Shown here: in pieces, positions 2,291 through 50,601 of the stretch | How positions within the stretch are numbered: position 1 is the stretch's first letter | Layout: every line of letters begins with the position of its first letter | Assembly: GCA_004293915.1 (NCBI GenBank) | Contig: RDZG01000092.1 | Span: 1 to 50,601 of the forward strand | Direction: 5' to 3' | Length of the DNA: 50,601 nt | From: Bacteroidota bacterium | GTDB taxonomy: Bacteria; Bacteroidota; Bacteroidia; Cytophagales; UBA9547 | The notes under the pieces: model-generated | What the model saw: the letters and a program-made list of their open reading frames with translations, nothing else | What the model was told of the DNA's origin: nothing | Database searches by the model: none | Position numbers and translations under genes: made by a program

Positions 2291-5200
2291 TTGAAACACA
2301 TATACATACGTAAGTTATTCTTACTGTTACTTTTAGTTTTTGCTTTTGGAATTAAAGCGCAAAATTCAGGCTTAGTTGGAGCCGACATTAGTTATCAATC
2401 TTTGGGAAATAACAAATATCAGTTTGAAGTTTCGGTTTTAAGAGATTGTGAAAGTGTTTTTCAAGTACAAAATACACAATCGCTCAGTTATATTTCTTCT
2501 TTGTGTGGAATTAGCGGAAGCTTTAATTTGTTTTTAGTCAATTCAGAAGTAATTGCAACTTGCGAAAAAGGAGTTTCAAAATGCGATGGGGGTAATATTC
2601 GTTCTTTTCAGAAAAAAACTTTTCAAGGTGTAGTAACTTTACCACAGGCATGTAGAGATTATAAATTTCGATGGATTGGGTTTAATAGAGCAAATTCTCC
2701 TACAACTTTTGTTAATACAGTTACATCAATGTCGATTGAAGCATTATTAAACACTGTAGATGCACCAAACAATTCTTCGCCAAAATTTGCGAGTAAACCG
2801 CTGAATTTTGTTAGTAAAAACTATCTTACTAACTATTTACCAAGTGTTTCAGATGTGAATAGCGACTTATTGACTTTCAGTTCGATTGCACCTCAAAATT
2901 CGTTAGGGCAAAACATTTCTTATCTACCTGGTTTTTCTGCTTCGCAACCTGTATCTTCTTCAAGTGCTTTTTCTATAAATTCTGGTACAGGAGAAATCAA
3001 TTTTACTCCAACACAAGACGAAACTTCTGCAATTGTAATGAGAGCCACAGAAACCCGAAATGGTAATCTTATTGGCTATGTTACCAGAGAAATGCGAATT
3101 GAAGTTTTAACAAATTCGGCTCCACCACCAACAGTTTCAGGTATTGATGGGCTAAATGTTGCTCTAAGCTTAAATTCATGTGTAGGCAAACCTATTTCTT
3201 TTTTCATAGATGGAAAAAGTTTAGGAAATGCTACAATGAAAATGGAACTGCTAAATCCACCTGCAGGCTCTAGTTTTAGAACAATTGCAAGTGTAGGTGC
3301 TGTAAGAGGTAATTTTTCGTGGACTCCATCAACAGTTGGCATTCAGCAATTACAATTTAAAGTGAGTGATGGTTTGTGTCCGTATGAAGGAACTACAACT
3401 AAAATAATTACCATTGATGTAAAACAAATTCCGCAAATAAGTTTAAATGTACCATTATCTACAACTGTTTCGGATTGTAATGTGCCACTTAATGTTTTAG
3501 TGATTCCAACGGTTAGTAGCGGAAATAATTTCACATGGTTTGATGCATCTGACTTAACACAAAGCATTGCAACCACAAAAAATTATAATGTTACAAAACC
3601 AGCACAATATAAGTTTTTTGTTTCCGATGCTTTTGGATGTGGTAATAATATAACTGTTGAATTTTTAGGCAAATTAGTAGTTGATTTTACCTATGATGAC
3701 TTTAATTCGTGCAAAAACAAAAAGACAAAATTTCAAAATTTTTCTTATACTAATGATTTTACACAACAGACAGTTATTACTGGATTTACTTGGGATTTTG
3801 GCGATGGAAGTCCATTAATAAATACAACTGCCACACAAAGAGATACAGCCCATGTATATGCAACGGATGGAATAAAAAATGTAAAACTTACAGGAAGAAC
3901 AAATAATGGTTGTGTGGTTACTACATCAAAAAATATTAAAGTATATACAAAACCTATCCCAAATGTAATTATTGGACCGAAATATATTTGCGAATCACCT
4001 GGTTTTGTAGAGATAGTAGGCACACTAACAGGCTATAACACTACTTTAGGAGGAATTGAAAATTATAAATTTGTATTTGATAATGGCGCACAAACTTTTA
4101 ACAATCAAGTAGTTAAATATTCAACCACAAATTCTGTTGTGGGAATAAAATTTGTTGGTGGAATTAATAACTGTAAAGATTCAATTACAATTACAAGAAA
4201 TGTAAATAAAAAACCACAATTTATTAACGTAACTCCTAACTTTATTCAAGTTTGTACTATACCAAGTTATCCCAATTTAACATTAGTTGGCTTAGGAACT
4301 CCCGTTTCCAATGCTTTGGCAATTTCAAATATATTAAAGTACAAATGGGTAACTACAAAAGGAATTTTTAATACACCTGAGCAATTACCTATTGTATTAA
4401 ATAATATATCTAAGACATATTTTTTAGATATTGAAGATACCTTAGGTTGCATAAATACTACATCAATTGGCATTAATGCGGGGATTGATGCTAAGTTCAA
4501 GTATGATTCTTATTATTGTAAAGAAGGAGATTTGGTGTCAATATCAGATGTTTCTACCGTTCGAGGAATTCCGGCAAAGTGGAGTTGGGATTTGGTAATT
4601 TTACCATCGGTTTCTGGCACAAATTCCATTCCTACACCGCAAACTTTTACGGGAATACCAAACACACTTACAGGTAAATTTGATGTTACTTTATATTTAG
4701 AAGATCAATATGGTTGCAAAGATACTGCTATTTATCCCATGCTTCGCTATTTACCAAAATTCAATAAGACTGCCATTTCTAAAAACCAACTTTGTTTTAA
4801 AGAACCATTGAATTTATTTGGAACGCCAAGTGCTGGGCTTGATGATGCAAACAACGTAAACTATTGGAAATGGGAATATGGCGATGGAGCAAATAGCAGT
4901 AATACGCTTATTAACCATACAGATTACAGACAAAATAATTCTGCAAATATTATCGAACGAGTAATTGGAGGTTCTAAAAATGTGTATGCGGATACAGCAT
5001 TTTTTATTTCGCATACTTATTCTTTATCTGGAATTTATACAATAAAACATACAGTTGGATATAATGACGGGTCGTTTTTCATTACACCAAATTCTCTATC
5101 ATTAACATTACCACCCGCAGGTTGTATTTATGTTTATACTACAACCTCTGAAGTATACCCAGAATTGAAATATATTTTTGCAGACCCTATAAACAAATGT

Positions 5201-6607
5201 GCGGGAACTCCAACCGAATTTATTGCTAGCAGAGCAAATACGGGAAATACTTTTACTGTAATGCCAGATAAATTCAAATGGGAATTTAATAAGCTGAATG
5301 GGCTAACTCCACCTACAAGTTTTGGAACAATTGTTGGCAATAACAATGGAGATACCACAAAAGTTATTAAAACATTTACAGAAGGAGGAACAGTAAATTT
5401 TGGTTTAAATCCGTATGTAGTGCAATTAACAGTTGAGGATATTAAAGGCTGTAAAGGAATATTTAAAGATTCTATCGATAATGCCGTAATTCCACAACCT
5501 AAATTAATAAATCCCGCTCAAGCATGTCAAAATAGTTTAGTTATATTTAATATTGAAGATGCACTCGAAAACAATATTTTGAGTACTGTAGATAATATTT
5601 GGTATTTTGAAGATTCTGATATTATATACGAAAAAAGAGGTGTTCGTCCAGCTCCAAAATTCAAATCATCTCCATTATCAATCAAAAATTATGCCGTTAC
5701 GTTTGTGGGTGGTGCTGGATTTGAAAAATGTTTTACAACAGTTTCTGGAACATATACAACTAATATTTCGCCTTCAACAACGTTTGAAATTCCTGCAAAC
5801 TGGTGTAGCAATGATGTGCTAACTATTTCGCCTGTTCTAACTTCAAATACATCTGATGTTTCAGTTGAATCTTTGCAAAATTTTTGGACTTTTCCTGATA
5901 AATCTACTCAAAATAATTTAAAATCAACATTTACAAAATCTTTGAAAACAGGCAGAGATACCATAACCGTAATTACCTTAAATCCACTTAACAGTTGTAC
6001 TGATACCACTCGAAAAGTCGTAAATGTATTATTTAGCCCTAAAGCAGATTTTACATTTGCATCTACTGACCCAGCCGACAAACAGTATGTTTTTTCTACT
6101 AGCGATATTAAATTTAGCGATAGAGTTTCTACTGTTGATGGCAGTAACACCACTACAAAAACGTGGGATTGGGCAAATGGAACAATAACTAAAAAAGGTG
6201 GCGAACCTTTCGATACCGTTTTTAGCTATCAAAAATCGGCTATTTTTAATGTAAAATATGTAATTAAAAATACTGATTTATGCACAGATTCGATTACCAA
6301 AAAAGTTGATTTGACTAGCTTTTTGAAAATGCCAAATGCTTTTTATCCTAATCCCGAAGACCCAGAAAATGTAAATAGTTCGTTTGGTGTGTATCAAAAT
6401 GGAATAAAAAATTTGCAAGTTTTTCAAATTTTTAACCGTTGGGGACAAATAGTTTTCGAAACAACATCTACAAACGAAAAATGGAATGGAAAAAACAATA
6501 ATAAAGGTGCTGATTGTCCTGCGGGGGTGTATATGTATCGAGTGAAAGCCACCACAGGATACAACGAAGGGATTGATTATAAGGGACAAGTAACATTGAT
6601 TAGATAA
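2291..6607 (+). CDS. Giant PKD-domain protein with T9SS type-B C-terminal sorting domain
   Basis: This is an extracellular protein of about 1438 aa. A signal peptide ends at GIKAQ. Ig-like and cadherin-like repeats follow, then PKD-type domains recognisable by FTWDFGDGSP (about residue 505), WSWDL, WKWEYGDGA and KWEFN. The last ~90 residues form the gliding-associated type-B CTD (FNRWGQIVFE, then KGADCPAGVYMYRV), which directs export through the type IX system and surface attachment. The best start is TTG at 2291, which puts the signal peptide at the N terminus; a TTG at 2270 is in frame. There is no ATG candidate. It leads a cassette with porP (30 bp downstream) and a porE-like gene. Its role may be adhesion or gliding; the ligand is unknown. 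Confidence 0.9.
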   Translation: MKHIYIRKLFLLLLLVFAFGIKAQNSGLVGADISYQSLGNNKYQFEVSVLRDCESVFQVQNTQSLSYISSLCGISGSFNLFLVNSEVIATCEKGVSKCDGGNIRSFQKKTFQGVVTLPQACRDYKFRWIGFNRANSPTTFVNTVTSMSIEALLNTVDAPNNSSPKFASKPLNFVSKNYLTNYLPSVSDVNSDLLTFSSIAPQNSLGQNISYLPGFSASQPVSSSSAFSINSGTGEINFTPTQDETSAIVMRATETRNGNLIGYVTREMRIEVLTNSAPPPTVSGIDGLNVALSLNSCVGKPISFFIDGKSLGNATMKMELLNPPAGSSFRTIASVGAVRGNFSWTPSTVGIQQLQFKVSDGLCPYEGTTTKIITIDVKQIPQISLNVPLSTTVSDCNVPLNVLVIPTVSSGNNFTWFDASDLTQSIATTKNYNVTKPAQYKFFVSDAFGCGNNITVEFLGKLVVDFTYDDFNSCKNKKTKFQNFSYTNDFTQQTVITGFTWDFGDGSPLINTTATQRDTAHVYATDGIKNVKLTGRTNNGCVVTTSKNIKVYTKPIPNVIIGPKYICESPGFVEIVGTLTGYNTTLGGIENYKFVFDNGAQTFNNQVVKYSTTNSVVGIKFVGGINNCKDSITITRNVNKKPQFINVTPNFIQVCTIPSYPNLTLVGLGTPVSNALAISNILKYKWVTTKGIFNTPEQLPIVLNNISKTYFLDIEDTLGCINTTSIGINAGIDAKFKYDSYYCKEGDLVSISDVSTVRGIPAKWSWDLVILPSVSGTNSIPTPQTFTGIPNTLTGKFDVTLYLEDQYGCKDTAIYPMLRYLPKFNKTAISKNQLCFKEPLNLFGTPSAGLDDANNVNYWKWEYGDGANSSNTLINHTDYRQNNSANIIERVIGGSKNVYADTAFFISHTYSLSGIYTIKHTVGYNDGSFFITPNSLSLTLPPAGCIYVYTTTSEVYPELKYIFADPINKCAGTPTEFIASRANTGNTFTVMPDKFKWEFNKLNGLTPPTSFGTIVGNNNGDTTKVIKTFTEGGTVNFGLNPYVVQLTVEDIKGCKGIFKDSIDNAVIPQPKLINPAQACQNSLVIFNIEDALENNILSTVDNIWYFEDSDIIYEKRGVRPAPKFKSSPLSIKNYAVTFVGGAGFEKCFTTVSGTYTTNISPSTTFEIPANWCSNDVLTISPVLTSNTSDVSVESLQNFWTFPDKSTQNNLKSTFTKSLKTGRDTITVITLNPLNSCTDTTRKVVNVLFSPKADFTFASTDPADKQYVFSTSDIKFSDRVSTVDGSNTTTKTWDWANGTITKKGGEPFDTVFSYQKSAIFNVKYVIKNTDLCTDSITKKVDLTSFLKMPNAFYPNPEDPENVNSSFGVYQNGIKNLQVFQIFNRWGQIVFETTSTNEKWNGKNNNKGADCPAGVYMYRVKATTGYNEGIDYKGQVTLIR

Positions 6608-6637
6608 TAAATTTAGCTATTTTTAATATTTTATATT

Positions 6638-7678
6638 TTGAGTTTTAAGAAAAATATTGTTCTCATTTTAGGGTTATTTTTTGGGTATATACAAGCCCAA
6701 GATTATAATTTTTCGCAGTTTTACAATACGCCTATTGTAGTAAATCCTGCCCAAACAGGCAAGTTTGAAAAAGATTTTCGTATAGGTTTAATCCACAGAA
6801 GTGCTTATTCTACTTACACCAATTCGGCTTTGATGGCTGACATTAATTTTCAAAAGTCAATTCTAAAATCCGATATGTTTGGACTTGGTTTGGTGGTTTA
6901 CAACGACCAACAAGGCAACGGACAATTTAATACTAGTGGATTTTTGCTTTCAGCAGCCAATCATTATGCATTGGATGATATGAAACAACACAAACTTAGT
7001 TTCGGTTTGCAACTAGGCATGAGTTTTGGCAATTTCAATCGTAATAATTTACTTTTTCCAGGTTCGTTTAACACAGCTACTAACGAGCCAACTGAAACAG
7101 TAAATATTCCAACAAATCATAGTAAAATGTCAATTTACACTAATTTTGGTGCTTTTTATGATTTTAATATAAACCGAAAATTAGATTTGTTTTTAGGAGC
7201 ATCTCTTTTTAATATTTCGGGTCCTAAACAAGGGTTTTCTACAAATAATAATGCGGGTGGTACACCTCTAAAAATTGGATTACAAGCAGGATTAAGCTAT
7301 TTTATTTCAGAAAAATTCCAGATTTTACCAGCTGTAAATTTATTTATGCAAGCAGGTTCTAAAGATTTGATTTTAGGTTCAAATTTTTCATATTTTATTA
7401 TTAATAATGCAAAAACTGGCAAAAAAGCTTCGGTTATGTTTGGGCTTTGGCACAGACTTTCAGATTCATTTATTGCCTATTTAGGATTTAAGTATAACAG
7501 TTTTCAACTTGGCTTTTCGTATGATTTCACCGTTTCGGCTTTAGGAAAATCTGGTGGAAATATTCCAAATTTAACTCGTAGTTTTTCGACTGGAGCTTGG
7601 GAAATTTCGCTCATTTATTCAGGATTTTTAAACAGAGCCATTCCCGACAAAACCACTGTACCTTGTAGAACATTTTAA
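6638..7678 (+). CDS. PorP/SprF family type IX secretion outer-membrane protein
   Basis: The 346-aa product has a signal peptide (to GYIQAQ) and then the family's opening segment NFSQFYNTPIVVNPAQTG. The body alternates hydrophobic beta strands, as in an outer-membrane barrel (for example YFISEKFQILPAVNLFMQAG). PorP/SprF proteins partner with type-B-sorted substrates and the PorE machinery, and are commonly encoded next to the surface protein they serve, as here. The start is TTG at 6638, which gives the signal peptide exactly; no ATG is available. The stop is 2 bp from the next start, so translation is probably coupled. Confidence 0.9.
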   Translation: MSFKKNIVLILGLFFGYIQAQDYNFSQFYNTPIVVNPAQTGKFEKDFRIGLIHRSAYSTYTNSALMADINFQKSILKSDMFGLGLVVYNDQQGNGQFNTSGFLLSAANHYALDDMKQHKLSFGLQLGMSFGNFNRNNLLFPGSFNTATNEPTETVNIPTNHSKMSIYTNFGAFYDFNINRKLDLFLGASLFNISGPKQGFSTNNNAGGTPLKIGLQAGLSYFISEKFQILPAVNLFMQAGSKDLILGSNFSYFIINNAKTGKKASVMFGLWHRLSDSFIAYLGFKYNSFQLGFSYDFTVSALGKSGGNIPNLTRSFSTGAWEISLIYSGFLNRAIPDKTTVPCRTF

Positions 7679-7680
7679 GA

Positions 7681-9987
7681 ATGAAATATACTTATTTTAT
7701 AACTCTTTTGTTATTTTTTTCAACAACTGCATTTTCACAATTGCGTGATAACTCTAAACTTTCTGATGAGCAAAAACACAAAGTTGCACACAAATTAATT
7801 GAAATCAATAGTCCATATAATGCTATTCCTATTTTGGAAGAATTAGTAAAAAAGCATCCTGATTCTAAAAAATACATTTTCAAATTAGCCGAAGCTTATT
7901 TTAAATCTCGAAACTATATAAAAGCCGAAGTACTATATCCAAAATTAGAAGAAAATCTTAGCCCCAAAAACAAAGAAACACCTGTTACAATAGCTTCGTT
8001 TCATTATGCCGAATGTTTGAAATATAATGCCAAATACGAAAAAGCTAGAGAAGTTTTTGAGCAATTTAGCAAAAGTAATTATAGAGATATAAAAGGAGCA
8101 AATTTAAAAGTTTTGGCAAAAAACGAAGTCAAAGCCTGTGAATTTGCCATGCAAGGCAAAACCAGCGATATTGATGTTGAATTTTCGCATTTAGGTAATA
8201 ATATCAATTCAAACTATACCGATTTTTCACCAAGTTTAAAAGACGATTCAACACTTATTTTTGCATCGATGCAAGCCGATTCTGTTATTGCAATTCCGTA
8301 TGGCGAACGACACGATGAGCATGTAAAACTTTTTGAAAGTAAATTCGAAAATGGTGCTTGGGCAGAAGCAAAAGTTATTAAAGAACTCAAAAACAAAAAT
8401 GGGCATAGTGCAAATGGCTCATTTTCAGCCGATAGAAAGCGTTTTTATTTTACAAATTGTATCAATAAATCAGATAATAGAGTGGAATGTAAAATCTATT
8501 TATCAAAATTAGACTCGAATGGAAATTTTGGAAAACCTGAAAAATTAGGCTCAGAAATTAATGCACCTGGCTATTCGAGTTCGCAACCCGTAGTTGGAAT
8601 GCGAATTATAAAAAGTAAAACTTCTGAAAAATCGAAAAATAAACCCAAAGAAACCAAAGAAGAAGTGTTGTTTTTTACATCTGATAGAAAAGGTACGTTA
8701 GGCGGAACCGATATTTGGTATTCGTCCATTGCAAGTGATGGCTATATGGGAGATGCCATAAACTGCGGCAGAAATATAAATTCGGTACGAGATGAAATTA
8801 CACCATATTACGATACCGATGCAGGTGTTCTTTATTTTAGTTCTAATTTTCATGCTGGATTTGGCGGTTTTGATGTTTTTAAATCAAAAGGATGGAATAG
8901 CAAATGGCAAAAACCCGAAAATTTGAAAAAACCAATCAATACAAATTATGATGAAACATACTATACCTTGTTGCCTGACAATAAATTAGAAGGTTTTTTA
9001 GTATCAAATAGGGTAGGAGGGTATGGACTTTTGCATCCATCGTGTTGCGATGATATTTGGCAATTTAATTATAAAATACCTTCGATTTTGGTTATAAATA
9101 CCATTGACGAAGCAGGTAATACGATTTCGGATGCGGATATAAAAGTGATTTCGGGAAAATATTCTTCTGTTAATGATAGTTCGAGCTATAATTTGGATGC
9201 CAGTATAGATTTTGATACTGTTTTTGCAAATGAAGACAAGCATTTTTTGAAAGTAATTGGTATAAAAGAACCTTTAGAATCTTACTATATTATCGGTGGA
9301 AACGAAAAAGTAAATATTAATGTAACAAGTACTGGATTTAACGAAACCAGAGCTAATTTTTTAACCGATTCGCTTTCAAAACCTGTTTCGTTTAAAGTTA
9401 ATTTTGGTAATGCAAATGAAGAAATTGAAGCTAATTTAATAAAAGTTACCATTAACATGCAAAAAGGGAATTTGGTGTATCAGCCATTTGTTCCTGCAAC
9501 TATTGAAGAGAAAAAAGATACTGTAAAAATTGCTTCTACCTTGCAACAAGAATATGCAAAAGTTGTAAATGAGCCAAAATCTGAAATCTATTTAGAAGAT
9601 ACTACCAAGAAAAAAGTAGTTGAAGAAATTGATTTTACAATAAATTTAACTTTTGAGTACAAAACCATAGAACTTACTGGAAAAAACAAATTAACTTTAG
9701 ATAGCTTAGTTTCGATTTTGAAAAAAGATCCTAAACTTTCGATAGCCTTTACAACACATACCGATGGAATTGGAAGCGAAAACTACAATTTGGAATTATC
9801 TCAAAAACGAGCGCAGTTTTTGGCAAATTATGTATTGAAATCTGGTGTACCCAAACGCAAAATTTCAGGTGCAAAAGGAGTTGGCGAATCAAAACCTTTA
9901 TTTCCAGAAATACTCCCTGACGGCTCAGACGCCCCAACAGCCAGAGCCAAAAACCGCAGAACAGAAATACGCTTGTTTAAAATGTGA
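7681..9987 (+). CDS. PorE-like OmpA family protein (TPR + PD40 propeller + CRD + OmpA)
   Basis: The 768-aa product starts with a signal peptide (to TAFSQ). TPR-like helices follow at about residues 25-150 (AIPILEELVKKHPDSKKYIF), then PD40/WD40-like propeller blades (DFSPSLKDDSTLIFAS, LFFTSDRKGTLGGTDIW, LYFSSNFHAGFGGFDVFKS) and a carboxypeptidase-regulatory-like domain near residues 460-510. The C-terminal OmpA peptidoglycan-binding domain runs to the end (HTDGIGSENYN, AKNRRTEIRL). This domain order matches PorE of the type IX system, which tethers it to peptidoglycan. The gene sits directly behind porP. Several PorE paralogues usually occur per genome, so this one may serve the local type-B protein. 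Confidence 0.88.
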   Translation: MKYTYFITLLLFFSTTAFSQLRDNSKLSDEQKHKVAHKLIEINSPYNAIPILEELVKKHPDSKKYIFKLAEAYFKSRNYIKAEVLYPKLEENLSPKNKETPVTIASFHYAECLKYNAKYEKAREVFEQFSKSNYRDIKGANLKVLAKNEVKACEFAMQGKTSDIDVEFSHLGNNINSNYTDFSPSLKDDSTLIFASMQADSVIAIPYGERHDEHVKLFESKFENGAWAEAKVIKELKNKNGHSANGSFSADRKRFYFTNCINKSDNRVECKIYLSKLDSNGNFGKPEKLGSEINAPGYSSSQPVVGMRIIKSKTSEKSKNKPKETKEEVLFFTSDRKGTLGGTDIWYSSIASDGYMGDAINCGRNINSVRDEITPYYDTDAGVLYFSSNFHAGFGGFDVFKSKGWNSKWQKPENLKKPINTNYDETYYTLLPDNKLEGFLVSNRVGGYGLLHPSCCDDIWQFNYKIPSILVINTIDEAGNTISDADIKVISGKYSSVNDSSSYNLDASIDFDTVFANEDKHFLKVIGIKEPLESYYIIGGNEKVNINVTSTGFNETRANFLTDSLSKPVSFKVNFGNANEEIEANLIKVTINMQKGNLVYQPFVPATIEEKKDTVKIASTLQQEYAKVVNEPKSEIYLEDTTKKKVVEEIDFTINLTFEYKTIELTGKNKLTLDSLVSILKKDPKLSIAFTTHTDGIGSENYNLELSQKRAQFLANYVLKSGVPKRKISGAKGVGESKPLFPEILPDGSDAPTARAKNRRTEIRLFKM

Positions 9988-44762: not shown

Positions 44763-47501
44763 ATGTCTGAAATTTCAAAAATATACGACCCCTCAAATAT
44801 CGAAAACAAATGGTATAGCTATTGGCTACAACATAATTTTTTTCATTCAGAACCTAATCCAAATAAAAAGCCATATACCATTGTGATTCCTCCACCAAAT
44901 GTAACTGGAGTGCTTCACATGGGACACATGCTCAACAACACCATTCAAGATGTGTTGATTCGAAGAAAAAGAATGCAAGGATTTGAAGCCTGCTGGGTTC
45001 CTGGTACCGATCATGCTTCTATAGCTACCGAAGCCAAAGTAGTGGCTATGTTGAAAGAAAAAGGCATTAACAAAAAAGACCTTTCAAGAGAAGATTTTTT
45101 GAAATATGCTTGGGAATGGAAAGAAAAATATGGTGGAATTATTCTTGAACAACTCAAAAAGTTAGGTGCAAGTTGCGATTGGGAACGAACTCGCTTCACT
45201 ATGGAAGAACCTCTTTCAGAAGCTGTTATTGATGTTTTTATTGATTTGTATAATAAAGGGCTTATATACAGAGGTGCTAGAATGGTAAACTGGGATCCGC
45301 AAGGACTTACTGCCGTTTCCGATGAAGAAGTAATATATAAGGAAGTTAATTCTAAATTGTATTATATTAAATATTACAGTTCCCCTCCCCAAGGGGAGGG
45401 GTTAGGGGTGGGGCTTAATGGAATCACAATTGCTACTACTCGTCCAGAAACTATCATGGCAGATGTGGCTATATGTGTAAATCCAAATGATGAGCGTTAT
45501 AAAAACTTGATTGGCAAAAAAGTTCTTATTCCTTTAATCAATAAAAAAATACCTGTGATTGCTGATGAATATGTTGATATTGAATTTGGTACAGGATGCC
45601 TTAAAATCACCCCAGCACATGATATAAATGACTACAATATAGGCTTAAAACATAAATTAGAAGTCATTGATATTCTTAATCCAAATGGAACATTAAACGA
45701 AAAAGCACAAATTTATGTAGGCGAAGACCGTTTCGTAGCTCGCAAAAAAATAGCCAAAGAATTGGAAGAAAAAGGCTATTTGATAGAAGCCAAAGACATG
45801 GTAAACAAAGTAGGCACATCTGAACGCACAGGTGCGGTGATTGAACCTCGAATTTCTACTCAATGGTTTTGCTCGATGAAAGAAATGGCAAAACCTGCTT
45901 TGGAAAATGTGCTAAATGGAAATATAAAATTGCATCCTAATAAGTTTATCAATACATACAAACATTGGATGGAAAACGTACAAGATTGGTGTATCTCTCG
46001 CCAATTGTGGTGGGGACAGCAAATTCCAGCTTGGTATTTACCAAATGGAGATTTTGTAGTTGCGAAAACAAAAGATGAAGCATTTAATAAATTGAAAATT
46101 GATAATATAGAATTGAGATTAGAGGATGTTTTACAAGATGAAGATGTTTTAGACACTTGGTTTTCTTCTTGGTTGTGGCCTATTTCGGTGTTCAGCCCCC
46201 TAGCCCCCGAAGGGGGAACTGCTGAACCAGCATCAGGCAAGGGTATTGTAAATGGTAAAATCTCCCCCATCGGGGGTTGGGGGGCATATTATTACCCAAC
46301 ACAAGACCTAGTAACTGCCCCTGAAATTCTTTTTTTCTGGGTGGCACGCATGATTATGGCTGGGTATGAATTTAAAGGCGATTTACCTTTTTCAAATGTA
46401 TATCTTACAGGAATTGTAAGAGACAAGCAAGGCAGAAAAATGAGTAAATCTTTAGGAAATTCGCCAGATCCTATTGAATTAATAGAGAAATTTAGTGCTG
46501 ATGGTGTGCGTGTGGGTATGTTATATGCTTCTCCTGCTGGAAACGATTTGCTTTTTGATGAAAAATATTGCGAACAAGGAAGAAATTTTGCCAATAAACT
46601 TTGGAATGCTTTTAGATTAATTAATGGGTGGGAAGTAGTAAGTTCCCCTCCCCTTGGGGAGGGGCTAGGGGTGGGGTTAAATTCTCCACATTCTAGTATT
46701 TCTGCAGAATGGTTCAATCATAAATTCAACCAAAAACTTGCAGAAATTGAAGATAATTATGATAAATATCGCATTTCGGATGCTTTAAAAGGTGTTTATT
46801 CGTTGGTTTGGGATGATTTTTGTGCTTGGTATCTCGAAATGATAAAACCAGAATTTGGAAAACCCATTGATAAAACAACTTTTGATCAAACGATAGTTTA
46901 CTTTGAAAAAATACTAAAAATTGTTCATCCTTTTATGCCATTTATTACCGAAGAAATTTGGCATGAAATTGCAAACAGAAATCAAAAAGACTGTATAATC
47001 GTAGCCGAATATCCAGTTTTAGAGCCTTATAATCAATCGTTTATAGATTATTCTGATAAGATTTTAGAAATTATTTCGCAAGTTCGGAATTTCAGAAGTA
47101 GCAAAGGACTTTCTCCAAAAGTTGCTTTGAAATTGGTTGCAAAATCAATTCAAACAGATGCACTACTCGATTATGTTTCTCAATTTGAAACTATCATAAA
47201 AAAGTTAGTAAATATTTCTGAAATCACTATTTCAAAAGATGCACTTTCAAATTCAAATTTTATAGTTGGCAGTTTAGAATTTCATATTCCGCTCGAAGGA
47301 AAAGTAGATGCAGAAAAAGAAAAAGCCGAAACGCAAAAGGAAATAGATTATTTGATTGGATTTCTAAAATCGGTTGATGCAAAATTATCTAATGAAAAAT
47401 TTGTGGCAAATGCCAAACCCGAAGTTTTGGCAAACGAACAAAAAAAGAAAGCAGATGCCGAAGCAAAATTGTTATCTTTGCAAAAATTTAATGTTGTTTA
47501 A
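44763..47501 (+). CDS. valS: Valyl-tRNA synthetase with three in-frame palindromic insertions
   Basis: ValRS charges tRNA(Val). The 912-aa product has PPPNVTGVLHMGHML (HIGH motif, residues 39-53), the editing-domain segment ATTRPETIMAD, VQDWCISRQLWWGQQIPAWY, DTWFSSWLWP, GRKMSKSLGNSPDP (KMSKS), the anticodon-binding domain and a C-terminal coiled coil (KAETQKEIDYLIGFLKS). Three stretches are foreign: SSPPQGEGLGVGLN at about 206-219, SPLAPEGGTAEPASG through SPIGGWG at about 478-508, and SSPPLGEGLGVGLN at about 627-640. All lie between conserved blocks, in frame and GC-rich. The start at 44763 (MSEISKIYDPSNIE) is the usual one. Confidence 0.96.
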   Translation: MSEISKIYDPSNIENKWYSYWLQHNFFHSEPNPNKKPYTIVIPPPNVTGVLHMGHMLNNTIQDVLIRRKRMQGFEACWVPGTDHASIATEAKVVAMLKEKGINKKDLSREDFLKYAWEWKEKYGGIILEQLKKLGASCDWERTRFTMEEPLSEAVIDVFIDLYNKGLIYRGARMVNWDPQGLTAVSDEEVIYKEVNSKLYYIKYYSSPPQGEGLGVGLNGITIATTRPETIMADVAICVNPNDERYKNLIGKKVLIPLINKKIPVIADEYVDIEFGTGCLKITPAHDINDYNIGLKHKLEVIDILNPNGTLNEKAQIYVGEDRFVARKKIAKELEEKGYLIEAKDMVNKVGTSERTGAVIEPRISTQWFCSMKEMAKPALENVLNGNIKLHPNKFINTYKHWMENVQDWCISRQLWWGQQIPAWYLPNGDFVVAKTKDEAFNKLKIDNIELRLEDVLQDEDVLDTWFSSWLWPISVFSPLAPEGGTAEPASGKGIVNGKISPIGGWGAYYYPTQDLVTAPEILFFWVARMIMAGYEFKGDLPFSNVYLTGIVRDKQGRKMSKSLGNSPDPIELIEKFSADGVRVGMLYASPAGNDLLFDEKYCEQGRNFANKLWNAFRLINGWEVVSSPPLGEGLGVGLNSPHSSISAEWFNHKFNQKLAEIEDNYDKYRISDALKGVYSLVWDDFCAWYLEMIKPEFGKPIDKTTFDQTIVYFEKILKIVHPFMPFITEEIWHEIANRNQKDCIIVAEYPVLEPYNQSFIDYSDKILEIISQVRNFRSSKGLSPKVALKLVAKSIQTDALLDYVSQFETIIKKLVNISEITISKDALSNSNFIVGSLEFHIPLEGKVDAEKEKAETQKEIDYLIGFLKSVDAKLSNEKFVANAKPEVLANEQKKKADAEAKLLSLQKFNVV
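45381..45416. repeat. GC-rich palindromic element 1 inside valS
   Basis: CCCCTCCCC-AA-GGGGAGGGG is a perfect palindrome (45382-45401), followed by TTAGGGGTGGGG. It is a near-copy of element 3 at 46644-46677 and stands out from the AT-rich gene. It encodes SPPQGEGLGVG in the ValRS frame, just before the editing domain. Confidence 0.9.
46194..46285. repeat. Composite palindromic element 2 inside valS
   Basis: Two inverted copies of a second GC-rich motif, with CCCCCGAAGGGGG at the left (46194-46217) and CCCCCATCGGGGG at the right (46263-46285), flank a 45-bp spacer. The arms match at about 20 of 24 positions. Translation stays in frame as an insertion of about 30 residues between the conserved WPISVF and YYYPT segments of ValRS. 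Confidence 0.85.
46644..46677. repeat. GC-rich palindromic element 3 inside valS
   Basis: CCCCTCCCC-TT-GGGGAGGGG is a perfect palindrome (46645-46664), followed by CTAGGGGTGGGG. It is nearly identical to element 1, has the same orientation and is read in the same frame. It encodes SPPLGEGLGVG between the catalytic and anticodon-binding parts. Confidence 0.9.
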
Positions 47502-47517
47502 ATTAAGAATAAAACAT

Positions 47518-48669
47518 ATGAAATTCAAGAACTCTTTATTTATTTCTGTAGTATTTTTTTTGTTTTTTTCATGTACAAAAAAAAATGACTATTACTTTAA
47601 GAAATTTTTTAAAAATACTATTTCACTAGATCAAAATGCAATAAATACATTAGATGATTCAATAGCTTTTGTAAAAGGAAACTCAATAGGAGATACATTA
47701 AAATCTTATTTTTCTGCAAACCCTAAAGTTGTAATCTTTAATTCTTATTTTAAGACTAAAAATTCACTAGTTGTACATTTTTATGATGTTACTTCTAAGT
47801 TAATCAGTTTAGATTCTAATGGAAAGAAGTTAGATATGATTGATTTAACAGGAATTAAAAATGAAACTGTTTTTGAAAGCGATTCAACAATTGCTTCAAA
47901 TTTAGATTTTTATATTCATATTGATTCTAATATTACATTTTTAAGGTATCATATTGATAAAAATAATCTTGAAAAAGTTTTATTTAGAGAACTATTTAGA
48001 TTCAGGTATTCTAAAGGTAGATTTATTCGGGATTCTGATACATTAATTAATGTTATATCAGAACAAAAAGCATATTTTCGAGAATATTTTAATGAAAAAA
48101 TGAATAAAATAGATACTATTTACAACTTACGATTGCCATTAAATGAGGATTCATTAGTTTTGAAGAAATCAGCTATTGTTACTAATGAAGACTATAAGAT
48201 GTTAAGAATTCACAGTAATTTTATACCTATACCAGATTTTTGTAATTATGACGATATTAAACCTGGTACATTCGATTATTCTAGATCAATAGAAAATAGT
48301 AAAAGAAGAAATGAAACCTATTGTGAAAGTGATTTTGAAACTGCCCCATGGAATTTCTATTTTATTTATAGAGAGCTATATATAAATGAAACATCTAAAT
48401 ATTATATTATGCTTCGTCATGAAGAAAATAACGAAGACCATGCATATTTACTTTTTTCTTTTGATAGCTCATATATTCCTAAAAATATTTTATTATTAGA
48501 AAAATCATTTCGTAAAGATAAATTTTTTAATTTTAATATTGATACAAATGCAGTTGTGAAAATATTAAAATATTCAAATGGTGGAATTGAAAAAAAAGAA
48601 TTTAAAAAATTTCAACTCGGAAAAAATGGTAACATAACCGAAATAATAGAAGATGAAATTTATGAATAA
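47518..48669 (+). CDS. Lipoprotein of unknown function
   Basis: The 383-aa product has a lipoprotein signal peptide: MKFKNSLFISVVFFLFFSC, with the lipobox Cys19 followed by TKKND. The ATG at 47518 is preferred because it places this signal at the N terminus; upstream in-frame starts lie inside valS. The remainder is hydrophilic and strand-rich, with no family recognised (segments such as FRYSKGRFIRDSDTLINVIS and ETAPWNFYFIYRELYIN). It follows valS by 16 bp and ends 43 bp before a terminator, so it may share the valS transcript. Confidence 0.75.
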   Translation: MKFKNSLFISVVFFLFFSCTKKNDYYFKKFFKNTISLDQNAINTLDDSIAFVKGNSIGDTLKSYFSANPKVVIFNSYFKTKNSLVVHFYDVTSKLISLDSNGKKLDMIDLTGIKNETVFESDSTIASNLDFYIHIDSNITFLRYHIDKNNLEKVLFRELFRFRYSKGRFIRDSDTLINVISEQKAYFREYFNEKMNKIDTIYNLRLPLNEDSLVLKKSAIVTNEDYKMLRIHSNFIPIPDFCNYDDIKPGTFDYSRSIENSKRRNETYCESDFETAPWNFYFIYRELYINETSKYYIMLRHEENNEDHAYLLFSFDSSYIPKNILLLEKSFRKDKFFNFNIDTNAVVKILKYSNGGIEKKEFKKFQLGKNGNITEIIEDEIYE

Positions 48670-48712
48670 TTCTGCTTCGATTTATTTTTGTAGTTGACTA
48701 AAGTTAGTAAAT

Positions 48713-48744
48713 AAAAAAAGTCCCTTTTTCAAGGGACTTTTTTT
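48713..48744. terminator. Bidirectional terminator after the lipoprotein gene
   Basis: The stem AAAAAAAGTCCCTT pairs with AAGGGACTTTTTTT around TTTC. It lies just outside the predicted IS110 boundary at about 48755, so it belongs to the host chromosome. Confidence 0.9.
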
Positions 48745-48768
48745 TATTTTGCCTTTGATTTCTATGGT

Positions 48769-49776
48769 TTATGCAACTAATCTTGTATAATTTTTTTCAT
48801 ATTTTCGATTTTGGTTTACACAGGCGAAAATATGTAGTATCAGTTTGTTACGCACCGCATTGATGACAAGCATTTTGTTTTTCTTTTCTTCATTTACTTT
48901 TCGATCATAGTATTTTTTCATATCAGGATTATAAGTTATGGCTGTGAGTGCAGACATATGCAATAATGTTTTTACTTTCTTGTTTGCCATGTGCGAGACT
49001 CGTGCTTTTCCCTTAAACAAACCCGACTCTTTTGTGAAGGGGGCTACCCCTGCATAACAAGCGAATTTTTTAGGGTCTTTAATGTCTTTGAACTCGTTTG
49101 TGGTTATCAGTATTTGTGTGGCAGTTACTGTACCAACTCCATTCACAGAAGTAATGAGACCAAATAATCGCTTGAGTTCTTCATCTGACTCAATGAGTGC
49201 ATCAATGGCATCATTTACTTTTTTCAGATCGGCTTCTATACTATTTAAAGTCCGTTGACAAATCGTTTGGGCTTCGTTGGCAATACTTCTGCTCACAAAG
49301 CCATTACTTTCTTTCAAGGGTGTTTTTAACTGCTTTTGAGCCTCCAATAATCTAGATCGTGTTGCAGCTAGATAAGCCAATTTCTGAATTACTTCTCGCT
49401 TTGGTTGCCATAAACGCAATTCCTCACGGTTTTTATTGGCATATTCAGCAATACGCATAGCATCAACTTTGTCGTTTTTACCTCTGATATTACCCAATGA
49501 GTTTTTGATGTGCGTAGCAGCTTCTAAACAAGAATTAGCCTTCTTTTTATGCAGATACACCAGCAAATGATTGTTGTAGATACCTGTATGCTCCATACAA
49601 AACACCGCTTTCGCTAGATCAAATTCAGGTTGCTTTTTAAGCTCATTAACAAAGTCTTTAATAGCATTTGGTTCATTTGCTATCTCTTTGTGAAATAAGA
49701 ACTCTTTACCTCGCATTACTGCAAAGTCTAATTCGTTTTTTGATACATCGCAACCGATAAAATAAGTAAATTCCAT
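48769..49776 (-). CDS. IS110-family transposase (DEDD RuvC-like, serine C-terminal domain)
   Basis: The 335-aa recombinase is apparently intact. The N-terminal RuvC-like domain has YFIGCDVSKNELDFAV (Asp at residue 9), VFCMEHTGIYN (Glu near residue 63), and NDKVDAMRIAEYA (the final Asp pair near 100-103). A coiled-coil region spans about 130-200. The C-terminal Tnp20 domain has VNGVGTVTATQILI and ACYAGVAPFTKESGLFKGKAR with the catalytic Ser in SGLFKG, then LLHMSALTAI. The family uses a bridge RNA to choose target and donor; a candidate lies directly upstream (49823-49987). The start is ATG at 49776. Confidence 0.96.
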   Translation of the reverse strand: MEFTYFIGCDVSKNELDFAVMRGKEFLFHKEIANEPNAIKDFVNELKKQPEFDLAKAVFCMEHTGIYNNHLLVYLHKKKANSCLEAATHIKNSLGNIRGKNDKVDAMRIAEYANKNREELRLWQPKREVIQKLAYLAATRSRLLEAQKQLKTPLKESNGFVSRSIANEAQTICQRTLNSIEADLKKVNDAIDALIESDEELKRLFGLITSVNGVGTVTATQILITTNEFKDIKDPKKFACYAGVAPFTKESGLFKGKARVSHMANKKVKTLLHMSALTAITYNPDMKKYYDRKVNEEKKNKMLVINAVRNKLILHIFACVNQNRKYEKNYTRLVA

Positions 49777-49822
49777 ATCTTTGCATGGTTTATGAGTGAA
49801 ATTATAAACAAAAAGTTAGCAC

Positions 49823-49987
49823 GTTTTAAACACCATCAATACCTTACTAATGAGCCTATAAACTCTAATTTCTATTTGATGCCATAGTTTAAAACAAACG
49901 GTAAAGGATTAAATCAAAGGATAAGCCATATGCTTAGTTGGTGTTAATACTCGCCTTTACCGTTGCTTACTTTTCCACAATTGTGGA
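49823..49987 (-). ncRNA. Candidate IS110 bridge RNA
   Basis: The non-coding end upstream of the transposase folds, reading in the transposase direction, as a small palindrome (TCCACAATTGTGGA, 49987-49974). Two stem-loops follow: one closed by AACGGTAAAGG/CCTTTACCGTT (49964-49897) and one closed by GTTTTAAAC/GTTTAAAAC (49895-49823). In the first, the 3' inner strand CCTTTGATTT is complementary to the top strand at the transposase-distal junction (48752-48761). In the second, the 5' inner strand ATAGAAAT equals the element end (48758-48765), and the 3' inner strand TATTGAT pairs with the other end (50022-50028). This order and strand use is that of target- and donor-binding loops. Confidence 0.65.
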
Positions 49988-50081
49988 TAATTCTAAAAGA
50001 AAAAAGAAGCAAAAAAGAAAATATTGATAATAATATTAATAGTTTTACTTCTTAGTTTAATACAATGATGTAAACCTAAAG

Positions 50082-50100
50082 GTTGGTGTTCTTCACCAAC
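50082..50100. repeat. REP-like hairpin upstream of RAYT remnant
   Basis: GTTGGTG and CACCAAC close a 5-nt loop (TTCTT). A very similar hairpin occurs 86 bp further on in the same orientation. Such pairs usually accompany REP-associated tyrosine transposases. Confidence 0.65.
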
Positions 50101-50167
50101 AAACCTACTAAACTTAATTCTATAATTTGCTATATTTTTATAACAGATTTCATGTTTTTTGCCTTTA

Positions 50168-50186
50168 TTGGTGTTCATTTCACCAA
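50168..50186. repeat. Second REP-like hairpin
   Basis: TTGGTG and CACCAA close a 7-nt loop beginning TTCA. It shares TTGGTGTTC and CACCAACAAA with the hairpin at 50082 and lies 26 bp before the RAYT remnant. Confidence 0.6.
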
Positions 50187-50211
50187 CAAAACTTTTATAT
50201 CTTTGCAATTA

Positions 50212-50601
50212 GATGCAAATCATTGTAGAATATCCATACTTTTTTACTGCCACTATACTAGAATGGAAGCATTTATTAAGATATTATTGTAAGTAGCTTG
50301 GCATATATGGCAGAGAACAACAGAATGAAAATATTTGCATTTGTTATCATGAGCAATCATATTCATGTTATATGGCAAAATATACCGCCATATAATCAAA
50401 AGGAAAATCAATTATCGTTTATGAAATTTACAGCTCAAATGATATTAAAAGAATTAAGGAATAATCATCAAGAAGTATTGAAGCATTTTTGAAGTAAATC
50501 TTAAAGATAGAAAATATCAAATTTGGGAAAGAAACCCATTAAGTATTGAACTAAGAAGCAAGCATGTAAGTGAACAAAAGCTTACGTATATCCACGAAAA
50601 T
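50212..50601 (+). pseudogene. Frameshifted REP-associated (IS200-like, Y1) transposase, cut by window end
   Basis: Three pieces in different frames make up one RAYT-like protein. The first (from 50212) reads MQIIVEYPYFFTATILEWKH. The second reads SLAYMAENNRMKIF then AFVIMSNHIHVIWQ, which carries the HxH metal site of HUH/Y1 transposases. The third (from 50491) reads EVNLKDRKYQIWERNPLSIE up to the window edge. The first break loses several residues near 50280. The second is one extra T in the T5 run near 50486-50490. The upstream REP-like hairpins fit this family. It is inactive as read; the rest of the gene lies beyond the window. Confidence 0.8.

What the first reader, a model, noticed from the sequence alone, without database searches (positions are those of the whole stretch)
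48752..50037. IS110 element whose bridge RNA guides can be read from the sequence
Two adjacent stem-loops upstream of the transposase contain strands matching both element ends and the right flank. The first-loop 3' strand CCTTTGATTT is complementary over 10 nt to the junction at 48752-48761. The second-loop 5' strand ATAGAAAT equals the element end at 48758-48765. The second-loop 3' strand TATTGAT pairs with the other end at 50022-50028. A weaker fourth match (AGTATTA with 50031-50037, one G-T) fits the left flank. The overlaps put the core inside ATCAA. The agreement in strand, order and position is the notable part, although AT-rich matches of 7-8 nt carry some chance.
Basis: partly seen in the sequence, partly recalled or inferred. 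Interest (0 to 1): 0.75.

Follow-up and report, generated by a model that had tools for sequence, protein, structure and literature searches.

The report
IS110 jumping gene with readable RNA guide

Summary
The window holds an IS110-family element (minus strand, 48758-50081, 1324 bp): a DEDD/Tnp recombinase with an open frame and, upstream, a bridge RNA with a target loop and a donor loop. Its left end (50022-50028), its "ATCAA" core and its other two guides do not: most of TATTGAT is a strand of the conserved donor-loop stem. The target is a REP-like palindrome; uninterrupted copies (AACACCAAC|AAAGGC) occur elsewhere in the same genome. In 27 related elements guides fit their own flanks better than others' (0 of 20,000 permutations, left and right); of 25 further elements 22 could be tested on the left (0 of 20,000) and 9 on the right (1 of 20,000). 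RNA stems covary strongly. Two details differ from IS621: donor and target share one base (C) rather than CT, and the joined ends resemble a Bacteroidota-type promoter. New member of a known kind, with a possible one-base-core variant.

The parts
48758..50081 (-). IS110 element body, LE (CTTTAGG...) to RE (...ATAGAAAT), 1324 bp
   Evidence: Aligned elements read C|CTTTA at the left (26 of 27) and ATRGAAATC at the right (24 of 27); both were located by motif. Boundaries supported independently by multi-copy elements and by flank-guide fit. Length:
48772..49776 (-). Recombinase, 335 aa: PF01548 DEDD_Tnp_IS110 and PF02371 Transposase_20; D10, E62, D102, D105 and S251 line up with IS621 D11, E60, D102, D105, S241
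   Evidence: IS621 residue names; PDB chain numbers run 2 higher, my reading of the alignment
49823..49964 (-). Structured core of the bridge RNA (target loop then donor loop)
   Evidence: A1 covariation; model R1 hit 49822-49972, E 1.2e-27, the only hit at E up to 1 in the genome (the window is one of the model's sequences)
49897..49964 (-). Target-binding loop closed by AACGGTAAAGG / CCTTTACCGTT
   Evidence: helix 1: all 9 pairs have changes on both sides
49823..49895 (-). Donor-binding loop closed by GTTTTAAAC / GTTTAAAAC, with inner helix ATCAA/TTGAT
   Evidence: the outer stem is read in the window and was not counted on the alignment
49937..49945 (-). Left target guide AACACCAAC
   Evidence: equals left flank 50082-50090 exactly
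49915..49920 (-). Right target guide CCTTTG; the following A,U,U (49914-49912) are handshake bases fitting the donor end AAT
   Evidence: pairs with C AAAGG at 48752-48757
49868..49875 (-). Left donor guide ATAGAAAT
   Evidence: equals RE 48758-48765; in L066, L068 and L076 loop and end both read ATGGAAAT
49842..49849 (-). Right donor guide TA-GT-AAGG; pairs with CCTT-TA at LE 50077-50082, two bases flipped out as in IS621
   Evidence: read; IS621 pattern
49841..49841 (-). Handshake guide base (U) in the donor loop, fitting the target base before the core (A at 50083)
   Evidence: pairs in 23 of 26 elements (10 Watson-Crick, 13 G-U) against 13.5 in permutations, 0 of 20,000
50082..50082 (-). 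Core C, left junction
   Evidence: 26 of 26 counted elements have C here (L040 dropped)
48757..48757 (-). Core C, right junction
50082..50100 (-). Left half of the target: REP-like palindrome GTTGGTGAAGAACACCAAC
   Evidence: 25 copies in the genome with up to 3 mismatches against 1 for the reversed pattern
48747..48757 (-). Right half of the target, CAAAGGCAAAA
   Evidence: same tail as uninterrupted REP copies in C153
48774..48776 (-). TTG in RE: possible -33 element of a promoter completed only in the circle
50071..50078 (-). TAGGTTTA in LE: possible -7 element (TAnnTTTG with one mismatch), 20 bp from the TTG once the ends are joined
   Evidence: consensus from PMC7366714 (passage)

Best explanation
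An IS110-group insertion sequence that moves by bridge-RNA-guided recombination. The element excises as a circle, and joining RE to LE is proposed to complete a promoter that transcribes the bridge RNA. The target loop pairs with a REP-like palindrome: AACACCAAC with the bottom strand on the left, CCTTTG with the top strand on the right. The donor loop pairs with the element's joined ends: ATAGAAAT with RE, TA..AAGG with LE. The recombinase cuts and exchanges strands at the shared core, giving ...AACACCAA-C-CTTTAGG...ATAGAAAT-C-AAAGGC.... Shown by sequence: recombinase, RNA structure, guides, ends, target class and uninterrupted targets in the same genome. Inferred: transcription, circle formation, strand exchange and present activity.
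For: Both Pfam domains; IS621 and ISCro4 are the only two solved relatives at E up to 0.001 (E 1.1e-16 and 1.2e-19). RNA covariation over 27 elements: 93.1% of cells paired, 136 double-change cells against 44.8 shuffled, 0 of 500. Own flank fits own guide better than others' flanks: left 7.54/9 vs 5.01 (n=26), right 5.67/7 vs 4.03 (n=24), 0 of 20,000 each. On 25 elements outside that set: left 7.55 vs 5.32 (22 of 25 testable, 0 of 20,000), right 5.56 vs 4.35 (9 of 25, 1 of 20,000). Uninterrupted targets: AACACCAACAAAGGC exactly at three places in the same genome (at up to 2 mismatches, with Y at the ninth base, 78 matches against 24 for the reversed pattern), and look-alikes beside L011 and L043 (exact) and L038, L039, L045 and L064 (one mismatch). 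Four full copies in G381 share CGGGGCCGCC|CTTTAGG and ATC|CGTGCGG, with three kinds of outer left flank and four of outer right flank; seven copies in G343 likewise share short target halves with differing outer flanks.
Against: No RNA-seq, circle or activity data. Single copy in its genome, so there is no second insertion by this very element. No empty allele of this locus: the right-flank side (47400-48751) was searched in nine relatives, which matched only the valS end or the terminator; the left-flank side was not searched this way. Three other REP copies in G000, all on contig C27, also read AACACCAAC-CTTTAGG without an element, so in the window the left junction alone could be REP sequence; relatives decide it. 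The ends of relatives were located by motif, so their sameness is partly by construction. Some relatives fit poorly: L040 lacks CTTTAG, the right flanks of L017 and L061 do not match their guide in register, L186 and L173 score 5 of 9 on the left and L195 3 of 7 on the right.
Confidence: 0.93

Rival explanations
1. One reading: left end near 50022-50030, core inside ATCAA, RDG TATTGAT, LTG AGTATTA.
For: The strings match at the stated places.
Against: A match like TATTGAT arises in 10.6% of shuffles; 5 of its 7 letters are a stem strand. Relatives start at CTTTAG, and the sequence between that point and 50030 takes the place of the relatives' LE. The 9-nt flank match would be unexplained.
Confidence: 0.02
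2. A dead remnant: correct anatomy, but no longer able to move.
For: Single copy in the genome; its promoter-like -7 box ends in A instead of G.
Against: Open recombinase reading frame with the catalytic residues in place; exact guides and both ends intact.
Confidence: 0.25
3. The core is a dinucleotide as in IS621, and a mismatched second base is settled by repair after exchange.
For: IS621 cuts after a two-base core (PMC11208158, passages); repair could favour one strand.
Against: In 13 of the 23 elements with both junctions readable the base before C is T (donor) at the right but not T at the left, and the base after C is C (donor) at the left but not C at the right, so only C is common to the two joints.
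Confidence: 0.4

Closest known systems
IS621 (E. coli), IS110 group; PMC11208160, PMC11208158; PDB 8wt6
   Same: Recombinase domains and catalytic residues, bridge RNA in LE, TBL before DBL, four guides with the same strands, two flipped bases in the RDG, handshake guides, REP target, promoter at the RE-LE joint
   Different: Only a distant relative by sequence (E 1.1e-16). IS621 has a CT core; here only C is shared. Bacteroidota-type promoter motif instead of sigma-70 (hypothesis).
ISCro4; PDB 9t56
   Same: Best-scoring solved relative of the recombinase (E 1.2e-19)
   Different: Its guides and core were not examined here
IS1111 group, e.g. ISPa11 (REP target); PMC11187229
   Same: DEDD recombinase, guide RNA, REP target
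   Different: IS1111 elements carry the RNA downstream of the gene with the strand matches in the opposite order; here it is upstream, as in ISEc21 (IS110) (passages)

Membership tests
IS110 family | DEDD RuvC-like domain (PF01548) plus Transposase_20 (PF02371) with catalytic serine | tested here: met
IS110 group (not IS1111) | Long noncoding LE upstream of the gene holding the bridge RNA | tested here: met
   LE 305 nt against RE 11 nt beyond the stop codon; RNA upstream
Bridge-RNA system | Two internal-loop stem-loops with covarying stems | tested here: met
Bridge-RNA system | Target loop matches flanks, donor loop matches element ends, with IS621's strand rules | tested here: met
   Target loop. 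Donor loop: read in the window and in the alignment, no permutation test because the donor side hardly varies
Bridge-RNA system | Handshake guide covaries with the target base before the core | tested here: met
   23 of 26 paired, permutation mean 13.5, 0 of 20,000; the next position out shows no signal (11 of 26; 2687 of 20,000)
IS621-like core | CT core dinucleotide shared by donor and target | tested here: not met
   Only C shared; the following base is C in the donor and A (1), C (8) or G (15) in 24 right flanks
Bridge-RNA system | Circle intermediate, RNA bound to recombinase, guided recombination | not testable with these tools
   needs experiments

The most novel reading that the evidence does not exclude
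This Bacteroidota branch of IS110 recombines across a single shared base pair (C). The bases on either side are not shared by rule and are read instead by handshake guide bases that pair only after strand exchange, so the guide RNA itself would drive exchange forward. The LE sequence doing this (C|CTTTAG[A/G]TTTG) would at the same time be the -7 box of a promoter that exists only in the circle.
Probability: 0.45. Interest if true: 0.55.

Novelty: new member of a known kind. Interest (0 to 1): 0.4.

Why it matters
Bridge RNAs are programmable tools for inserting, inverting or excising DNA. This branch comes from Bacteroidota and seems to demand only one fixed base between donor and target, which would loosen the core requirement that IS621 imposes. 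It also shows that target and ends can be read from one genome, provided relatives fix the ends: reading AT-rich matches by eye got half of them wrong.

Tried and rejected
Rejected: "guide-only" small elements in G313. Of five copies of one element looked at, four carry LE and bridge RNA but no gene, yet all four are cut at a CTAGCTAGCTAG string that I take for an assembly linker joining contig ends (inference), so I do not count them as satellites. Rejected: further insertions at the three CTTTAGG-tailed REPs on C27; the genome has one recombinase match and one bridge-RNA match, both in the window, and nothing like LE follows there. Rejected: L138, a 1-mismatch match to the right junction; the 80 nt before it do not resemble the RE.

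No result: Rfam matches were all below the families' own thresholds. One scan of viral contigs gave no relative. The predicted target of the same-family element L206 was not enriched in its genome, 42 matches against 34 for the reversed pattern. No empty allele of the window locus was found among nine relatives searched with the right-flank side. No structure prediction was run.

Rows left out: A1 holds 27 bridge RNAs chosen by me from the lists. I left out copies of the same element (L051, L052, L072, L077, L079, a second copy in L066), L046 and L047 (target loop or left end broken), L070 (no normal target loop), and L021 and L073 (found only), and added L045 by hand. L065 (short flank) is missing from the left test, and L031, L050 and L060b (no right end found in the locus) from the right test. 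L040 was dropped from the handshake count. One search was given 33 of the 50 hits; 8 of the 33 were skipped as already in A1 or duplicates. One search misplaced the left ends of L010 and L065 and missed that of L017; one search took the match nearest the RNA instead.

Full report
What is there. On the minus strand, 48772-49776 encodes a 335-aa recombinase with both IS110 domains. Among solved structures only ISCro4 (9t56, E 1.2e-19) and IS621 (8wt6, E 1.1e-16) match at E up to 0.001. D10, E62, D102, D105 and S251 line up with IS621's D11, E60, D102, D105 and S241 (the PDB chain numbers run 2 higher, my reading). Upstream lies a structured RNA region; 49777-50030 folds better than its shuffles (z -2.72, 1 of 200 as good).

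Every string is where it was said to be. The right-end pair is sound. The left-end pair is not. Some 7-mer like TATTGAT finds a complement in 10.6% of shuffled left ends, and 5 of its 7 letters are the 3' strand of the donor-loop stem conserved across relatives (helix 4).

Where the left end really is. Nine loci from other genomes (L038-L043 with 63-70% protein identity; L050-L052, contig-end copies that show only the first 21 residues) share a left end that starts (C)CTTTAG in eight and TTTTAG in one, L040. In the whole A1 set, with loci from other genomes of the order, 25 of 27 have CTTTAG, one CTTTAA and one TTTTAG, mostly 40-111 nt upstream of the aligned RNA segment (leaving out L010 and L017, whose ends it did not place). 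In the window this is CTTTAGG at 50081-50075. The left target guide AACACCAAC then equals the flank over 9 nt; 24 of 20,000 shuffled flanks reach that. Because ends were located by motif, multi-copy elements are the independent check. In G381 four copies share CGGGGCCGCC|CTTTAGG and ATC|CGTGCGG and differ outside them, three kinds of left flank and four of right. Five copies in G313 share the same left half; the right end was found in one of them only.

RNA structure. On 27 sequences (A1) the consensus has 23 pairs; 93.1% of cells pair, 136 cells show changes on both sides (44.8 in shuffles, 0 of 500), and sliding partners by one column drops pairing to 46-49%. All nine pairs of the target-loop stem have changes on both sides. 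A model of it (R1) finds one copy in the window's genome, the window's own, and matches in 59 of 390 genomes sampled from the order, the own genome included.

Guides against flanks. Own left flank scores 7.54 of 9 against 5.01 for other elements' flanks (n=26; own is best or tied in 16), own right flank 5.67 of 7 against 4.03 (n=24; best or tied in 21); no permutation of 20,000 reached either. On 25 elements not in A1, with the same rule and a slightly wider end motif, the left test gave 7.55 against 5.32 (22 of 25 testable, 0 of 20,000) and the right 5.56 against 4.35 (9 of 25, 1 of 20,000). These elements are related and many share REP-like targets, so the permutation counts are not exact probabilities. 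Misfits: L017 and L061 on the right and L040 on the left; L186 and L173 on the left and L195 on the right.

Target. The left flank is a REP-like palindrome with 25 copies in the genome at up to 3 mismatches, 6 of them exact including the window's own (reversed control: 1). Two tandem copies on C153 and one on C97 read AACACCAACAAAGGC without interruption, which is what the window's two flanks give when placed side by side. Relatives show the same next to themselves: exact uninterrupted targets beside L011 and L043, one-mismatch ones beside L038, L039, L045 and L064; most other hits of that search have two or three mismatches and some are the element's own junction. L206, a 5' fragment in a genome of the same family, has the left flank AACACCAAC before CTTTAGC and the same nine letters in its target loop, but its predicted full target is not enriched there (42 against 34).

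Core. Using IS621 numbering, the donor reads A6 T7 C8 C9 and the target N7 C8 N9. C8 was found in 26 of 26 counted left junctions. T7 of the donor stays at the right junction and another base stands there at the left in 24 of 26; the donor's C9 stays at the left, and the base after C8 at the right is A in 1, C in 8 and G in 15 of 24. In 13 of 23 elements with both sides readable the shared stretch is exactly one base. Seven copies in G343 share TC at the joints but also differ at position 9 (read). IS621's core is CT, with T9 the stricter base (PMC11208158, passages). I did not find a one-base core in what I read: of PMC11208160 the abstract, passages, sections 5, 6, 12 and 19 and the first part of section 43; of PMC11208158 passages and section 11; of PMC11187229 passages. 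The listings showed no title on it. That is not a claim of absence from print.

Handshake. The donor-loop base after AAGG pairs with N7 in 23 of 26 elements: 10 Watson-Crick (A-U 4, T-A 2, C-G 4) and 13 G-U; permutation mean 13.5, 0 of 20,000. Watson-Crick alone gives 10 against 4.2, 2 of 20,000. The next position shows nothing (11 of 26; 2687 of 20,000). The idea of handshake guides is from PMC11208158 (section 11).

Promoter. With RE and LE joined, 17 of 23 elements show TTG, 20 bp, TAnnTTT[GAT] (11 with exact TAnnTTTG); letter-shuffled joints do so in 1.6% (0.3%). The window has TAGGTTTA. The Bacteroides consensus (TAnnTTTG at -7, TTTG near -33) is from PMC7366714 (passage), which also notes that the -33 motif was not seen in Flavobacterium johnsoniae. 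The six without the motif include the four relatives with CTTTAGATTAG, and shared ancestry inflates the count, so this stays a hypothesis. A promoter made by joining the ends is known for IS110 elements (PMC11208160; PMC11187229).

Verdict. The possible one-base core and the circle-only Bacteroidota promoter are the parts worth testing.

Noticed in passing
50298-50601 (+), with REP-like repeats at 50082-50100 and about 50161-50187: Part of a REP-associated Y1 transposase (PF01797 E 4.7e-4, below its cut-off) in broken frames at the window edge, beside the REP family that the IS110 element targets.
   Followed up: partly
L082, L083, L103 (G000 contig C27): Three REP copies have the tail CTTTAGG instead of AAAGGC, the same letters as the element's left end, with no element behind them. 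REP variant or scar of a lost insertion; unexplained.
   Followed up: partly
48713-48748 (+): Terminator-like hairpin next to the right flank; this 36-bp stretch is repeated exactly, reversed, on contig C97.
   Followed up: no
L201 (G343), 3529-9676: Five near-identical copies of a more distant IS110 element with bridge RNA within about 6 kb, four in one direction and one opposite.
   Followed up: partly
L187, L188, L190, L191 (G313): In a genome held as one contig, IS copies are cut at CTAGCTAGCTAG, which looks like a linker between joined contigs.
   Followed up: yes
L066, L068, L076: Donor guide and right end both changed from ATAGAAAT to ATGGAAAT: a natural double change in the donor pairing.
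   Followed up: yes
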